A DNA stretch of 5,994 nucleotides from CAYFZR01 sp046760505 [NCBI: Candidatus Hydrothermarchaeota archaeon] (GTDB lineage: Archaea; CAYFZR01): assembly GCA_046760505.1 (NCBI GenBank), contig JBHIEG010000061.1, forward strand, positions 1 through 5,994, written 5' to 3'. Below, one piece after another: positions 46 to 5,994 of the stretch. Both the position numbers and the translations under genes were made by a program. Position 1 is the first letter of the stretch. Each line of letters starts with the position of its first letter. The notes beneath the pieces are model-generated. The model was not told the origin of the DNA, ran no database searches, and worked only from the letters and a program-made list of their open reading frames with translations.

Positions 46-822
46 TTATGCATTATGAATTTGGGCTTGCATGACCGAATACGGCTTAGAAGATGCTTTA
101 CCGTATCTTAATGCTTCAGTAGGACATACATTTATACAATCGCCGCATCTTATACATTCGCCTGGAGGAATAGAATCTCTATTCTTCCATATGCTGTCTT
201 CTACTACTAAAAGGTCCATTGGACAGGTTCTCTGACATAAAAGACATGCTCTGCACTTCTCACGATCTACTACCACTCTTGTTAGACTAAATCTATCTAA
301 TATGGCTATTGTAGCTCCCAACGGGCAAAGGTATCTGCACCAAGCCCTACCATGATAGAACACCGCGAAAAATAAGGCTGCTACAAGCAACACCATGGGA
401 AACACTGGGGCTACACTTGCTGCATTTACACCTCTTATAAAGACGCCTGCTGGACATACGGTGCAAAAAACGGTATAACCATAAACAAAGGCAGCGATCA
501 AGAATCCCCCAAGTACAGAGTACTTTAGATTCCTATACTCCAAGAATTCAGGTATTCTATGTTTTCTTCTCGTAATGCCATTCAATATATCTAAAATCGT
601 TCCCCAAGGACAAATCCAGCCACAGAAAGCCCTTCCAAACAATATTGTGAGCAGTATGAGTCCTCCGATTGATGCGATCACCAAGGATATTAGAGGTTTT
701 CCTCCTGCTACGATACTCTGTATGAAGAAAAAAGGATCGTATTTATCCCATGTTCCCAGCATCGTAAGGGCGAAGAAAAGTACTACCAGCTGTGATACCC
801 TTCTTATGGGCTCTATATTCAT
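46..822 (-). CDS. NapH/MauN-type membrane polyferredoxin (4Fe-4S)
   Basis: This 258-residue protein is a membrane-bound iron-sulfur electron carrier of the NapH/MauN/NosR-C-terminal type. Hydrophobic helices lie at about residues 10-24, 43-63, 103-122 and 139-156. A CX3CP motif (C67, C71, in FCGWICPWG) follows the second helix, a CX2CP (C120, C123) ends the third, and a second CX3CP (C162, C166, in WCRYLCPLG) follows the fourth. The C-terminal part carries two classical 4Fe-4S ligand sets, C190-C193-C196-C200P and C223-C226-C229-C233P. The early DPFF motif near residue 29 is also typical of the family. The ATG start is preceded by GGAG at good spacing. The gene lies 43 bases downstream of the membrane-protein gene 866-1594 on the same strand, so the two are probably cotranscribed. 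In the family, such proteins pass electrons between the quinone pool or cytoplasm and an extracytoplasmic partner. The partner here is unknown, so I give no gene symbol. Confidence 0.9.
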   Translation of the reverse strand: MNIEPIRRVSQLVVLFFALTMLGTWDKYDPFFFIQSIVAGGKPLISLVIASIGGLILLTILFGRAFCGWICPWGTILDILNGITRRKHRIPEFLEYRNLKYSVLGGFLIAAFVYGYTVFCTVCPAGVFIRGVNAASVAPVFPMVLLVAALFFAVFYHGRAWCRYLCPLGATIAILDRFSLTRVVVDREKCRACLLCQRTCPMDLLVVEDSIWKNRDSIPPGECIRCGDCINVCPTEALRYGKASSKPYSVMQAQIHNA

Positions 823-865: not shown

Positions 866-1594
866 TTATCTCAGATAAGGTACCAAAGCCTTTCCAGTGA
901 TTAATGATACTACAAGGGCTGTAATTCCGGTAGCAATTAGAATCCCTGTCTCTTGAGAAGGTCCTGATGAGCCAATCTCCACCCCTAGGTTGCCCTCTCC
1001 TATGCCTCCCACTCCTCCAAGTGGAGAGGGTCCGCACGAGGCCGCAGCATTCACTATAAATGCCCCTATGAGTATTGGCAATGCCACGGGATTGTTGGTG
1101 ACCTCTGCGATTGCTTTCGCAAAATAATATACTCCAGGTATTAAAGCAGCGGCTAATATCCTACCACAAGGCATTGGAGTAATTGTAGGTATATTTACCA
1201 ATATCACCGCCACGAAAGGCAATCCGATGGATATTCCCTCTTTTAGTCCTAAAAAAGATATTCCTAACCCCTGTAGGGGGATAAATATAGCGTCTACAAA
1301 ATGCGCTATTTTCCAGCAGAGATCTAATAATGCGTCAAAGCCTCCCGCCAGTCCCAGGGCTCCTGCAATCAAGAATCCAGAGGTCATTGCCATTATTGGA
1401 TGTAAAATTACTCCTGCTAGCAAGTCTTCTATTCTCGCTCTACTTATCAGCATGATTACGATGGCAATAAATATCAGTATGGTTTGTATAGGTGGTACTT
1501 TGACTCCAAATTTACCGTAAAGTATGAGCGAGGTTGCTAAAACTATCATGAAAAAGGAGAATGAGATGTATCCTATTTTCAATCTTTCTTCCAC
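866..1594 (-). CDS. polytopic membrane protein of unknown function (transporter-like)
   Basis: This 242-residue, very hydrophobic protein has about eight predicted helices (roughly 8-27, 36-51, 65-88, 97-113, 121-137, 144-162, 170-186 and 214-235). I do not recognise the family. Two Gly/Pro/Cys-rich breaks stand out: one around residues 136-146 (IPTITPMPCGR), and a glycine-rich stretch at 184-204 (with SCGPSPLGGVGG) between the last two helices. Such non-helical Gly/Pro elements inside a membrane protein resemble re-entrant substrate- or ion-binding loops of secondary transporters, so a transporter or channel is the best guess. That is inference only. The start is GTG. It is supported by a strong GGGAGG site 7 bases upstream, and no alternative nearby has as good a site. 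It is the first gene of an apparent operon with the polyferredoxin gene 43 bases downstream, suggesting redox-linked transport or a membrane subunit of a redox complex. Confidence 0.85.
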   Translation of the reverse strand: MEERLKIGYISFSFFMIVLATSLILYGKFGVKVPPIQTILIFIAIVIMLISRARIEDLLAGVILHPIMAMTSGFLIAGALGLAGGFDALLDLCWKIAHFVDAIFIPLQGLGISFLGLKEGISIGLPFVAVILVNIPTITPMPCGRILAAALIPGVYYFAKAIAEVTNNPVALPILIGAFIVNAAASCGPSPLGGVGGIGEGNLGVEIGSSGPSQETGILIATGITALVVSLITGKALVPYLR

Positions 1595-2059: not shown

Positions 2060-2992
2060 CTATTCTAAATTCCATATGAAGACTCTTTCTGGAACATTGT
2101 AGACGTTTTTAATGGTTAATTTCATGTATTTTGATTGACCTTTGAGTTTGGGGAATTTTAGAAGTCCAAATCTGTGATGTCCTCCAGGAGGAGAGCCTTT
2201 CCAATCTATGGCCTTGTACTCGTTTTCCCAGGAATCCTCCAGTACGGATATATCTTTTAGATCGAAGTCAAGAGAGCCCCAGTGGGTATCGATCCTTACC
2301 TCAAAGATGACCGGTTTGTTATAACTGAAATCTACAGGAGTTACCTCAAAAGAAACTCCGTTTTCTGTATTTGTTTTTGTGGGGAGAGAAATAGTCTGTT
2401 GTCTGGTATTAGACAGTAAGCATCCGGATATCGTTACGATAAGCACCATGGAGAAAATTAAGATGGAAAGAATTATGGTTTTATTGCGGATTCCTTTCAT
2501 ATCAAATCTAAATATTTCTCCAAATAGACCTTTCATTCCATCAAATAATTCGTGTTTCTGTATTATTTCTAACATAATAGTAATTCCAATTAAGTTTGAG
2601 AGAATTCCTAGTAAAATGAATACTAATTGGTACTTAGTTAGAAATACCGCTGCAGCAGATAAACCGATAATTGGTAAAACATCGGTCAAATGGTGAGCAC
2701 AGCAAGCGATCATGGATGTCGTTGAGATTCCTCCTGTGGTAGCAACAGAGGTAGTAGCAGCCATTCTTCTTGCGTGAAAAGCGACCCGAATATAATAGTA
2801 GAGTCCTACTTGGATTCCAAAACCTAAAACTAAGATCAAAATCCAATACCACATATTGGTAAATTCTTCAACGGCATGATTAAAAGAATTAGCAACGGTA
2901 AGAATTCCAAAATATATAGTCAACAAAACAGAACTGCCTATGAAACCCACTAATATTGGGCTTTTCCGTATTTTGCTTCCGGCATCCGTCAT
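2060..2992 (-). CDS. CCAHH-motif membrane protein fused to a GGHHR extracytoplasmic domain
   Basis: This 310-residue protein has two parts. Residues 1-190 hold about five to six helices (13-34, 47-70, 88-101, 104-118, 122-144, 171-190). A conserved-looking motif ACCAHHLTDVLP (96-107) sits at the start of a helix, with C97, C98, H100 and H101 as possible metal ligands. Residues 191-310 form a soluble beta-rich domain containing VSFEVTPVDFS (213-223), DTHWGSLDFDL (235-245) and SPPGGHHRFGLL (267-278). From memory, both parts resemble bacterial and archaeal uncharacterised proteins, the second often seen as a stand-alone exported lipoprotein. The helix before the soluble domain ends in ISGC (188-191), which fits a lipobox, so the fusion joint falls exactly where a lipoprotein would begin. 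The ATG start has a GGGGGAA ribosome-binding site. Metal or redox handling is inferred from the Cys/His motifs only. No neighbour clearly shares an operon with it. Confidence 0.85.
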   Translation of the reverse strand: MTDAGSKIRKSPILVGFIGSSVLLTIYFGILTVANSFNHAVEEFTNMWYWILILVLGFGIQVGLYYYIRVAFHARRMAATTSVATTGGISTTSMIACCAHHLTDVLPIIGLSAAAVFLTKYQLVFILLGILSNLIGITIMLEIIQKHELFDGMKGLFGEIFRFDMKGIRNKTIILSILIFSMVLIVTISGCLLSNTRQQTISLPTKTNTENGVSFEVTPVDFSYNKPVIFEVRIDTHWGSLDFDLKDISVLEDSWENEYKAIDWKGSPPGGHHRFGLLKFPKLKGQSKYMKLTIKNVYNVPERVFIWNLE

Positions 2993-3930: not shown

Positions 3931-4194
3931 ATGATCTTTGTGAGCAAACCTTGCAAGACAGATTCTGCATATGAGGTCCTTCCAAAAACTAGGATAAGAA
4001 TTAACTTGGAGGAGAGCTGTGAAAAGCTTGTAAAGGGAGGGTATGAGATAGTTGTAACCACCCCTCACATTGCCGTTATCAAAAAAATATACGAAATCAG
4101 CATTTTTCCAAGTGGAAGGTTGTTGATCAAAGATTTAACGGATAAAAAAATAGCAGAAGATATTGCACGCGAGGTTTATGCCCTTGTTTTGTGA
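3931..4194 (+). CDS. small TBP-like-fold protein next to ThiI homologue
   Basis: This 87-residue protein has no membrane segment. Residues 21-82 read like one repeat of TATA-binding protein. An initial strand (RIRINL) leads into helix NLEESCEKL, followed by GGYEI at the position of the YEPE segment. Then come the strand series IAVIKK and EISIFPSGRLLIK, matching the TBP pattern of a hydrophobic strand with the S-G turn of IFSSGK, and a final helix KKIAEDIAREV. A TBP half-repeat is about this size, so the protein could form a dimer mimicking the two-repeat saddle. It lacks evident DNA-intercalating Phe pairs, so it is unlikely to be a general transcription factor. No ribosome-binding site precedes the ATG, while a TATA box sits about 27 bases upstream, implying a leaderless transcript. 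The ThiI-like gene starts 7 bases after its stop, so the two are almost certainly cotranscribed and may act together. The fold assignment rests on pattern matching by eye. Confidence 0.75.
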   Translation: MIFVSKPCKTDSAYEVLPKTRIRINLEESCEKLVKGGYEIVVTTPHIAVIKKIYEISIFPSGRLLIKDLTDKKIAEDIAREVYALVL

Positions 4195-4201
4195 GTAAAA
4201 A

Positions 4202-4831
4202 ATGAAGGCGGTTAGTTTAATTTCAGGTGGTATAGATTCACCTGTGGCCTCATACCTCATGTTGAGGAAAGGAATTGAGTTAGTGTATATGTACGCAGAC
4301 AATAAACCATTTGTGAGTGAGACTCCCCTTGAAAAGACGAAGAAACTTATAGGGTTACTGAAAAAGTTTGGCAGGGGATCTAAACTATACGTTATACCTC
4401 ATGGCCGTACTCAAGTTGAGATTCTGAGGCGTTGCGAGAGAAAATACACGTGTGTAATATGCAGGAGATTTATGTATCGCTGCGCCGAAAAGATTGCAAT
4501 AAAAGAGAATGCTCGTGCAATCGTTACAGGAGAGAACTTGGGGCAGGTAGCAAGCCAGACTCTCTCAAATCTTGTGGTAGAAGACTCTGCCGTAAACATT
4601 CCGATTCTTCGTCCTCTTTTGGCTTTAGACAAAAAAGAAATAATAAATAAAGCAAAAGAAATAGGAACTTACGAGATTTCTATTATTAGGAGCATGTGCT
4701 GTACGATAACTCCAAAATTCCCCGCCACGAAAACAGAAATAAGAGATATAGAAAGAGAGGAGAAAAGGTTGGATATTGAAAAACTTGTCCAGGACTCACT
4801 GAAAGATGCAAGTATCCTCAATGCGCTTTAA
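4202..4831 (+). CDS. ThiI-like tRNA sulfurtransferase, PP-loop domain only
   Basis: This 209-residue protein matches the AANH/PP-loop half of ThiI, the enzyme that adenylates U8 of tRNA and inserts sulfur to make 4-thiouridine; ThiI also takes part in thiazole sulfur transfer in some organisms. The ATP-binding PP-loop is SGGIDS (8-13). Other family signatures are CRRFMYR (87-93), VTGENLGQVASQT (108-120), ILRPLLALDKKEI (135-147), IGTYEIS (154-160) and MCCTITPKFPATKT (165-178). C84 and C87 form a CxxC just before RRFMYR. In archaeal ThiI, which lacks a rhodanese domain, this CxxC is the expected persulfide/disulfide site. The NFLD and THUMP domains that normally fill the first half of ThiI are absent, so tRNA binding must come from elsewhere, perhaps from the cotranscribed TBP-like protein 7 bases upstream. 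ATG follows a weak GTGAG. It may instead be a ThiI paralogue acting on another substrate, so I withhold the symbol thiI. Confidence 0.9.
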   Translation: MKAVSLISGGIDSPVASYLMLRKGIELVYMYADNKPFVSETPLEKTKKLIGLLKKFGRGSKLYVIPHGRTQVEILRRCERKYTCVICRRFMYRCAEKIAIKENARAIVTGENLGQVASQTLSNLVVEDSAVNIPILRPLLALDKKEIINKAKEIGTYEISIIRSMCCTITPKFPATKTEIRDIEREEKRLDIEKLVQDSLKDASILNAL

Positions 4832-4891: not shown

Positions 4892-5233
4892 TTATTCGTC
4901 TAGTCTCTCCACAAATATCTTCATTCCGTAAAGCCTCTTGATTTTCACCTTTTCTCCCTTTTTTAAAGCCTCATTCGAAATAGCCCCCCATAATTCGTTT
5001 TTGTACTCTACAATCCCCTCCGGGTTTATATCCCTTACCACAATTGCCTCTGACCCTATCATCTCTTCCCAACCCATTTTAGCCGGAATTCTCATGGATT
5101 CCACAATTTTATAGTATATAAAACCTGAGAAAGCCAAAATTACGATATACATAAGAAAGGCAGTCCAGAAAGGTAAAAAAATGAAAACTCCAAGACCGAT
5201 TAATGGCGCAAGTAAAATCAAGTGACAGAGCAA
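4892..5233 (-). CDS. short NfeD-family membrane protein with OB-fold domain
   Basis: This small NfeD-type protein has 113 residues from a TTG start, or 116 from the in-frame GTG at 5242. Two close hydrophobic helices (about residues 2-21 and 25-43) are followed by an OB-fold domain (about 55-111). Family hallmarks are GSEAIVVRDINPEGIVEY, the NELWGA motif at 79-84 (equivalent to the GELW of NfeD) and a final GMKIFVERL strand. Short NfeD proteins usually pair with stomatin/SPFH proteins, where the OB domain is thought to aid assembly or membrane-domain organisation. No stomatin gene is visible in the window. I prefer TTG because GAGGTG lies 6 bases before it, whereas the same GAGGTG overlaps the GTG and could not serve it. 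The gene follows the Cys-rich small gene at 5305-5460 by about 70 bases and may be read with it. Its 3' end faces the ThiI-like gene. Confidence 0.85.
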   Translation of the reverse strand: MLCHLILLAPLIGLGVFIFLPFWTAFLMYIVILAFSGFIYYKIVESMRIPAKMGWEEMIGSEAIVVRDINPEGIVEYKNELWGAISNEALKKGEKVKIKRLYGMKIFVERLDE

Positions 5234-5304
5234 CCCTAACACCTCAAACCATAGGTTGACAAATGAGGAGATGCCGAGAAAATTAAAATTTCCTGATAAT
5301 TTAC

Positions 5305-5460
5305 CTATTTATGGCATGATTTCTCGTTTTGGACATCTTCTGAGCTTTTTTTATGTCCTCCATGGCACCCTCCGCAACCAAGTCCAAATTTTCTTGCTAA
5401 GACGCCCCATATGATAAGGAAACCTACTAAGATGGATACATTAAACAGAAATTCAGACAT
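5305..5460 (-). CDS. 51-residue single-helix membrane protein with CGGCHGGH motif
   Basis: This short gene would be missed by a length cut-off. The minus strand reads ATG at 5460-5458 through TAG at 5307-5305, giving 51 residues. An N-terminal membrane helix (about 5-22, LFNVSILVGFLIIWGVLA) is followed by RKFG, then a Cys/His cluster CGGCHGGH (29-36) and a polar tail ending SCHK with C49 and H50. A very good ribosome-binding site, GAGGTGG, stands 7 bases before the ATG, and a TATA-like box lies a little further upstream. The layout (one helix, then a cytoplasmic Cys-rich tail) recalls the small Cys-rich membrane proteins found with FeoB iron transporters, but the motif is not identical and no feoB is visible. 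Metal binding or redox chemistry at the membrane is therefore inference. The downstream NfeD-type gene may be in the same transcript. It is a real gene if the Cys/His pattern is conserved in relatives. Confidence 0.7.
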   Translation of the reverse strand: MSEFLFNVSILVGFLIIWGVLARKFGLGCGGCHGGHKKSSEDVQNEKSCHK

Positions 5461-5462
5461 TT

Positions 5463-5473
5463 CAATACCACCT
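5463..5473 (-). promoter_or_regulatory. strong ribosome-binding site of the 51-residue gene
   Basis: The minus strand reads GAGGTGG followed by TATTGAA and ATG. The match to the archaeal 16S rRNA tail is long and the 7-base spacing is optimal. It is the main nucleotide evidence that the short reading frame is translated. Confidence 0.65.
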
Positions 5474-5508
5474 CAACTATAGTTAGAGATAGAAAACTTT
5501 ATCATTTG

Positions 5509-5518
5509 CTCTTTAAAA
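5509..5518 (-). promoter_or_regulatory. probable TATA box for the small Cys-rich protein gene
   Basis: On the minus strand TTTTTAAAG sits about 50 bases before the ATG at 5460. A start about 25 bases downstream of it (near 5488) would give a leader of roughly 28 bases, enough to carry the GAGGTGG ribosome-binding site. It lies just past the U-rich terminator region of the PEGA gene, consistent with a new transcription unit beginning here. Confidence 0.4.
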
Positions 5519-5522
5519 AAGG

Positions 5523-5560
5523 AAAAAAATCCCGCATCCAATTACCAAAAAACCAAAAAT
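5523..5560 (-). terminator. U-rich terminator region after the PEGA gene
   Basis: Just after the TAG stop, the minus strand has successive T runs (5 T's at 5559-5555, 6 at 5552-5547 and 7 at 5529-5523) without a clear hairpin. Archaeal transcription terminates on such U-tracts, so this is probably the end of the PEGA transcript. Confidence 0.5.
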
Positions 5561-5567
5561 AAAGTTT

Positions 5568-5994
5568 CTACTTCCATCGTCTTGGGTACATTCTTCTTCG
5601 GCGTCCAATTGATATTTTCTTCCAGTATACCCCAATCACTGCCAAGGACAATATCCCAAAACAAAACAAAGCAATTAATAGATAATCCAAGGGCTTTTTA
5701 GTTGTAACTGAAGTTGATACAAGCGTCGCATTTTCATAGACTTCTTCTCCAGACTTCACGGTTATTTCCTTTATATAATCCTTATATCCCTCTTTTGTAA
5801 GCTTTATTATATAATTGCCAGGCTGAATACTAAGTTCTAGAGGAGTTTTTCCCTTGTAGTTGTCATTGAGATATACACTTGCATCAGAGGGATCAGAAGA
5901 GACAACGATTTTTCCTGACTTAGGTGTGAGAACTGCTACTTCATAGACTTCTTCTCCAGACTTCACGGTTATTTCCTTTATATAATCCTTATAT
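5568..5994 (-). CDS. PEGA-repeat surface protein, C-terminally anchored (5' end outside window)
   Basis: This is the last 141 residues of a longer protein. The frame stays open to the right edge, so the apparent GTG start near 5966 is an internal Val codon. A complete PEGA domain is seen: GKIVVSSDPSDASVYLNDNY (visible residues 27-46), then the PEGA-like GKTPLE turn (48-53), PGNYIIKLTKEGY and KDYIKEITVKSGEEVYE. The same YKDYIKEITVKSGEEVYE also opens the visible part, 69 residues earlier, so at least two tandem PEGA units exist. A short Thr/Ser/Val linker (STSVTTKKP) leads to one transmembrane helix (about 102-124) and an Arg/Lys-rich tail (GRRRRMYPRRWK) that should stay in the cytoplasm. PEGA domains are beta-rich modules common in archaeal and bacterial surface proteins, so this is probably an envelope or adhesive protein displayed outside. 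The N-terminus, signal peptide and number of repeats cannot be seen. Confidence 0.88.
   Translation of the reverse strand, partial: YKDYIKEITVKSGEEVYEVAVLTPKSGKIVVSSDPSDASVYLNDNYKGKTPLELSIQPGNYIIKLTKEGYKDYIKEITVKSGEEVYENATLVSTSVTTKKPLDYLLIALFCFGILSLAVIGVYWKKISIGRRRRMYPRRWK
5733..5994 (-). repeat. tandem PEGA-unit repeat, 207-base period, 55 bases identical
   Basis: The stretches 5733-5787 and 5940-5994 are identical base for base over 55 positions and offset by 207 bases, exactly 69 codons. The second copy runs off the window, so the identity may extend further. They encode the end of one PEGA unit and the same segment of the next. Identity at synonymous positions points to recent duplication or gene conversion. 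Confidence 0.92.

What the first reader, a model, noticed from the sequence alone, without database searches (positions are those of the whole stretch)
5305..5460. Hidden 51-residue membrane protein with a CGGCHGGH metal-type motif
A short minus-strand frame combines a strong GAGGTGG ribosome-binding site at ideal spacing, one clean membrane helix, and a dense Cys/His cluster directly after it, plus a C-terminal CHK. Random frames rarely show all three. It resembles in layout the Cys-rich small proteins linked with iron transporters, yet its neighbours are an NfeD-type and a PEGA protein, so it may be a new small membrane metal or redox protein.
Basis: partly seen in the sequence, partly recalled or inferred. 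Interest (0 to 1): 0.65.

Follow-up and report, generated by a model that had tools for sequence, protein, structure and literature searches.

The report
Tiny Cys/His-tailed membrane protein gene
A 51-residue reading frame looks like a real, overlooked gene for a one-helix membrane protein with a probable metal-binding tail, broadly like small proteins that accompany bacterial iron transporters, but no relatives could be checked in its own kind of organism.

Summary
On the minus strand at 5305-5460 there is an ATG frame of 51 codons with the strongest ribosome-binding site of the gene starts tested, one clear membrane helix (residues 4-22), then CGGCHGGH and a final CHK. The combination occurred in 0 of 271,052 comparable frames in 56 Mb of simulated sequence, and the codon score lies within the range of the window's longer genes. 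I judge it a real gene (about 0.85).

Homology could not be settled. No genome is held for the window, the one genome scan reached two bacterial genomes, and no archaeal genome could be searched with this protein. [quoted passage not shown] Shuffled controls are mixed: the resemblance is mainly layout plus a GCxGC core. No FeoB lies in the window.

Most likely mechanism (inferred): a single-pass protein whose inward-facing Cys/His tail binds a transition metal, working like the FeoB-associated peptides but not shown to be one. A link to NfeD or PEGA rests on gene order alone. CGGCH is also a heme-c motif; the charge pattern argues against that.

The parts
5305..5460 (-). small ORF, 51 aa, ATG start, TAG stop
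   Evidence: coding score in gene range
5467..5474 (-). Shine-Dalgarno GAGGTGGT, 6 nt before the ATG
   Evidence: read; duplex energy -12.3 kcal/mol, 3 of 526 start-like codons as good
5473..5475 (-). in-frame TGA upstream, which fixes the start at the ATG
   Evidence: read
5395..5451 (-). codons 4-22, predicted membrane helix FLFNVSILVGFLIIWGVLA
   Evidence: Kyte-Doolittle 2.39; helix 2-25 in the model
5353..5376 (-). codons 29-36, CGGCHGGH (CxxC followed at once by HxxH; also contains CxxCH)
5308..5316 (-). codons 49-51, C-terminal CHK
5515..5529 (-). two T-tracts (TTTTTTT CC TTTTTT) shortly after the PEGA gene, possible archaeal-type terminator
   Evidence: read; function inferred
5510..5517 (-). 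TTTAAAGA, TATA-like, beginning 57 nt before the ATG (7 of 8 positions of YTTAWATA); possible own promoter
   Evidence: weak: 4 of the 7 starts scanned have a 7-of-8 box within 100 nt; consensus recalled
4892..5242 (-). next gene downstream: hydrophobic N-terminal half (read by eye) plus NfeD C-terminal domain; GAGGTG at 5240-5245 suggests the start may be TTG 5231-5233 rather than GTG 5240-5242
   Evidence: PF01957 E 3.2e-13; start read
5568..5993 (-). gene upstream: PEGA-domain protein with a C-terminal hydrophobic stretch (read by eye), runs off the window
   Evidence: PF08308 E 2.7e-22

Best explanation
A real, unrecognised small gene. Its product is a single-pass membrane protein with the N-terminus outside and the C-terminus inside; the tail holds three Cys and three His (CGGCHGGH...CHK) that coordinate one transition-metal ion, most likely Fe(II) or Zn(II), at the inner membrane face. 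It would work as a membrane-tethered metal acceptor, chaperone or sensor subunit for a membrane partner (a transporter or the neighbouring membrane proteins), in the manner one would expect of FeoB-associated Cys-rich peptides. Shown: frame, ribosome-binding site, hydrophobic helix, motif, improbability by chance. Inferred: translation, topology, metal binding, partner.
For: Frame and motif; best SD of the starts tested; coding score in the gene range; 0 of 271,052 simulated frames with all three features; helix model. Charge pattern: one acidic residue (E3) before the helix and R23, K24, K37, K38 after it, so the tail should face the cytoplasm by the positive-inside rule. PF12669, with the same helix-basic-Cys layout, is the only Pfam match (E 0.015); 0 of 60 segment-preserving shuffles matched that family, within HMMER's filters; hhalign against 59 fetched members beats 299 (global) and 298 (local) of 300 shuffles.
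Against: No homologue in what I could search, though no archaeal genome was among it. The metal site and the partner are inferred from sequence alone. Against an HMM of the 59 members the frame scores -1.8 bits, a score that 2068 of 3000 segment-preserving shuffles reach; without composition correction it scores 12.8 bits, reached by 116 of 3000. Up to 3 of 60 shuffles hit an unrelated Pfam family at E 0.04 or better, one of them at 0.0093, so E 0.015 alone is weak.
Confidence: 0.5

Rival explanations
1. It is a divergent true member of the FeoB-associated family (PF12669) and serves FeoB-type ferrous-iron uptake, with feoB outside the window.
For: Only Pfam match; same layout as the 59 members fetched, 59 of 59 with CxxC and 12 of 59 ending in CH plus at most 5 residues; 0 of 60 shuffles match PF12669.
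Against: 16 bits, cut-off 27. No FeoB in the window, while 41 of 44 stand-alone members sampled lie within about 1.5 kb of a FeoB-like gene and 15 of 59 are fused to one (4 of these FeoB-like frames checked and confirmed by Pfam). 0 of 59 have CxxCHxxH, and 57 of 59 have four or more Cys against three here. The local hhalign match is 7 columns, GCGGCHG.
Confidence: 0.2
2. A tiny membrane-anchored c-type cytochrome: CGGCH binds heme outside the cell.
For: CGGCH fits CxxCH; weak PDB hits include cytochromes c over residues 25-40 (E 0.95, second to an uncharacterized protein at 0.59); CxxCHxxH is common in multiheme cytochromes (recalled).
Against: Charges put the tail inside; the tail is under 30 residues with one CxxCH; no cytochrome family in Pfam at E up to 10.
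Confidence: 0.08
3. A partner of the downstream NfeD-type protein, acting with it in membrane-microdomain or stress functions rather than in metal handling.
For: Same strand, 62 nt apart.
Against: Gene order in one window only; no relative to show conserved pairing; no stomatin family among the 9 frames scanned.
Confidence: 0.1
4. A chance open frame that is not translated.
For: No homologue found; only 51 codons; synonymous-codon signal alone is weak (0.067).
Against: SD, helix and Cys/His together 0 of 271,052; codon score in gene range and above 24 of 25 other frames; strongest SD of the starts tested.
Confidence: 0.12

Closest known systems
[quoted passage not shown]
   Same: Short (stand-alone frames of 43-136 aa in the sample), one N-terminal helix, basic stretch, then a Cys cluster with CxxC, in 12 of 59 ending CH plus at most 5 residues.
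   Different: Below the family cut-off; His-rich CGGCHGGH, its CxxCHxxH pattern found in 0 of 59 members; three Cys where 57 of 59 have four or more; not near FeoB in the stretch seen.
Archaeal zinc-finger micro-proteins (Haloferax, PMC6562870; passages read)
   Same: Small, CxxC plus HxxH, and more frequent in archaea (paper: 8% of archaeal small proteins under 100 aa are potential zinc fingers against 1.5% in bacteria).
   Different: Here the CxxC and HxxH abut and follow a membrane helix; the passages read describe no membrane anchor.
FeoC
   Same: Small accessory with a Cys motif in an iron transport system (PMC8749426, passages read).
   Different: FeoC is called cytoplasmic in that paper's abstract (start seen); this frame has a membrane helix. 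No sequence comparison with FeoC was made beyond the Pfam scan, which lists no FeoC.

Membership tests
PF12669 FeoB_associated | score above the curated cut-off (27 bits) | tested here: not met
   16 bits, E 0.015
PF12669 FeoB_associated | short protein: N-terminal helix, basic residues, Cys cluster with CxxC | tested here: met
   compared with 59 members
PF12669 FeoB_associated | sequence similarity beyond composition and layout | tested here: inconclusive
   HMM of 59 members: 2068 of 3000 shuffles reach the corrected score, 116 of 3000 the uncorrected one; hhalign: 1 of 300 (global) and 2 of 300 (local) reach it; Pfam's own model: 0 of 60 shuffles match
PF12669 FeoB_associated | next to or fused with FeoB | tested here: inconclusive
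   no FeoB in the window, which shows only 534 nt upstream; 41 of 44 stand-alone members sampled have a FeoB-like gene within about 1.5 kb
c-type cytochrome | CxxCH motif | tested here: met
   CGGCH, residues 29-33
c-type cytochrome | motif on the outer face of the membrane | tested here: inconclusive
   charge distribution read from the sequence favours the inside
c-type cytochrome | match to a cytochrome c family | tested here: not met
   no such Pfam family at E up to 10; HMMER's filters drop most matches above about 0.1
zinc-finger micro-protein | paired CxxC / HxxH ligands in a protein under 100 aa | tested here: met
   definition from PMC6562870
zinc-finger micro-protein | binds zinc | not testable with these tools
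   needs expression and metal assay

The most novel reading that the evidence does not exclude
The founding member of an unannotated archaeal family of one-helix proteins with an inner-face CxxCHxxH metal site, conserved beside NfeD-type genes and working without FeoB.
Probability: 0.12. Interest if true: 0.5.

Novelty: new variant of a known kind. Interest (0 to 1): 0.3.

Why it matters
[quoted passage not shown] A frame with a very strong ribosome-binding site and a compact CxxCHxxH tail, with no Feo gene in the stretch seen, is a concrete test case. If it is lineage-specific or never translated, it matters little.

Tried and rejected
Finding relatives: ThiI in genome contigs gave only two bacterial loci, 44% and 41% identical; the small frame, ThiI, the 310-aa protein and the NfeD protein gave nothing in viral contigs, nor did the back-translated CGGCHGGH. 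The small frame gave nothing in plasmids or phages. The NfeD protein in plasmids gave 107 records with weak hits (best E 0.04), 93 of them Sinorhizobium, Rhizobium or Ensifer.

The small frame against 398 genomes of the phylum of L002's genome: 28 genomes with a match at E up to 0.1, where about 40 are expected by chance; the best one (3.7e-4) is broken by three stops. Against 379 genomes of the phylum of L001's genome: 31 genomes where about 38 are expected; best L082, a GCGTCHAEH stretch, taken as chance. So no credible homologue in either.

Using the ThiI gene for the only genome scan was meant to reach relatives with the whole neighbourhood; it failed, and no archaeal genome could then serve as a centre. 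The only look at named archaea was that of PF12669 in the tool's 14 control genomes: over the cut-off in 0 of 14; four of the 13 named are archaea. A heme-c reading and an NfeD-partner reading were kept only as rivals. No Rfam family reaches threshold in the window. PHROGs and NCBIfam give nothing for the small frame at E up to 10. One literature search held no paper with all its terms.

A first extraction of PF12669 members ignored the strand of the loci and was discarded (redone). In one search the row named NfeD_TTG5230 does not test the TTG at 5231-5233 that I name as a possible NfeD start; that start was read by eye. The FeoB nature of the neighbours was tested by Pfam on 4 frames only, all 4 with FeoB domains. 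The 59 members are, with one exception (L005), the best-scoring place of each genome among 77 listed places, so they lean to typical members.

Full report
Observation. The frame at 5305-5460 on the minus strand is as described. The ATG is preceded by GAGGTGGT with 6 nt spacing, and an in-frame TGA overlaps that site, so there is no upstream start. Pairing with the archaeal anti-SD (recalled sequence) is -12.3 kcal/mol, better than the other gene starts tested (the PEGA start lies outside the window); 3 of 526 start-like codons on both strands, itself included, are as good, without regard to spacing.

Chance. In 56 Mb of order-2 random sequence with the window's composition, 271,052 frames of 40-80 aa arose: 1,990 had an SD of 6 or more exact matches, 26,449 a helix, 379 a CxxC with at least 5 Cys/His in the tail, 55 helix plus Cys/His, 187 SD plus helix, and none all three. 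A first run of 6 Mb with a slightly different Cys/His rule also gave none (0 of 28,955 frames). The criteria were chosen after the fact. Codon preference is 0.135 bits/codon; leave-one-out values for 8 longer window genes run from -0.025 to 0.221, and 5 of the 8 lie below the small frame. Of 25 other frames of 40 aa or more, 24 lie below it, one of them close (5513-5635, 0.117), and one above (990-1127, 0.296, antisense to the 242-aa gene). The antisense 52-aa frame scores -0.143. The synonymous part alone is 0.067 (all). Four of the 8 training genes (140, 87, 242 and 310 aa) have no Pfam match at its cut-off, so the training set is not fully independent evidence.

Anatomy. Residues 4-22 form the best hydrophobic segment. 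AlphaFold from the single sequence gives helix 2-25, with mean pLDDT 90-93 over residues 1-20, and an unstructured tail at 55-67, which a tail that orders only on metal would also give. E3 lies before the helix, and R23, K24, K37, K38 after it, which predicts the tail inside. Ligands available: C29, C32, H33, H36, C49, H50.

Setting. The order on the minus strand is PEGA protein, small frame (107 nt later), NfeD-type protein (62 nt later). T-tracts shortly after the PEGA gene and a TATA-like TTTAAAGA suggest, weakly, that the small gene starts a new transcript; boxes of that quality stand before 4 of the 7 starts scanned. TTTATATG beginning 31 nt before the ATG of the 87-aa gene looks like a classic archaeal promoter (recalled); with the SD this makes an archaeal source likely, but no tool named the organism.

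Family. Pfam gives one match at E up to 10: PF12669, E 0.015, 16 bits, cut-off 27. I gathered 59 members (59 of the 77 places listed, mostly the best place of a genome; L005 was fetched; sequences). All 59 contain CxxC, 3 CxxCH, none CxxCHxxH; 12 end in CH plus at most 5 residues; 57 have four or more Cys. 15 are fused to a long FeoB-like frame, and 41 of 44 stand-alone ones have a FeoB-like gene within about 1.5 kb; the window has none. Pfam confirms FeoB domains in the 4 of these frames that I scanned. The family is found at E up to 1e-6 in 37 of 60 genomes of the family of L002's genome, at 1e-5 in 28 of 199 of its phylum, and over the cut-off in 0 of 14 control genomes.

Controls that keep the helix and tail compositions separate. 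Pfam: 0 of 60 shuffles match PF12669 within the tool's filters, but up to 3 of 60 match an unrelated family at E 0.04 or better, one at 0.0093. My own HMM: the frame scores -1.8 bits with composition correction, which 2068 of 3000 shuffles reach; without it 12.8 bits, which 116 of 3000 reach, or 99 of 3000 when the Cys are also kept in place, or 3 of 3000 when the whole protein is shuffled. hhalign: 1 of 300 (global) and 2 of 300 (local) shuffles reach its score, but the local match is 7 columns. Verdict: same layout and a shared GCxGC core; common descent not shown.

Relatives. None credible in the 398 and 379 genomes searched (matches at or below the chance rate), nor in plasmids, phages or viral contigs. 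No archaeal genome could be searched with this protein, so absence says little.

Literature. [quoted passage not shown] PMC6562870 (passages): classical C2H2 fingers use CxxC and HxxH; small potential zinc-finger proteins are more frequent in archaea. PMC11456600 (passages): 314 unannotated translated small ORFs in Methanosarcina mazei, one with four conserved cysteines discussed as a possible iron-sulfur protein. PMC9431491 (passages): in Methanococcus voltae a ferredoxin-like ORF between feoB and feoA, unique to that species by the authors' BLAST, is 69-fold more abundant on FeS2; lineage-specific Cys-rich accessories in archaea are therefore plausible. PMC5898192 (passages) does not mention NfeD or PEGA. 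The literal term CxxCHxxH occurs in no paper of the held library.

Conclusion. Probably a real gene (about 0.85) for an inner-face metal-binding micro-protein; the mechanism is inferred; the kind is known, the exact motif and setting are a variant.

Noticed in passing
4202-4831 (+): ThiI-type PP-loop protein of 209 aa with no THUMP region in the frame; it aligns only to the C-terminal half of full ThiI structures. It is preceded by an 87-aa frame (3931-4194) with no Pfam match and a TTTATATG promoter-like box 31 nt upstream.
   Followed up: partly
2060-2992 (-): 310-aa protein with no Pfam family at its cut-off and an ACCAHH motif beside hydrophobic stretches: a second Cys/His-bearing probable membrane protein in the window. 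No relative in viral contigs.
   Followed up: partly
866-1594 (-) and 46-822 (-): 242-aa hydrophobic protein with no Pfam family at its cut-off (CGPSPLGGVGGIGEG motif) directly upstream of a protein with several 4Fe-4S domains that looks NapH-like (recalled); the pair may be an operon.
   Followed up: no
5231-5245 (-): The NfeD gene's listed GTG start overlaps a GAGGTG; a TTG at 5231-5233 with 6 nt spacing may be the true start (read).
   Followed up: partly
L082 1501-1596: 76-aa frame in a genome of the phylum of L001's genome with GCGTCHAEH...CFCH, superficially like the tail here (E 0.0035, within chance for 379 genomes).
   Followed up: partly
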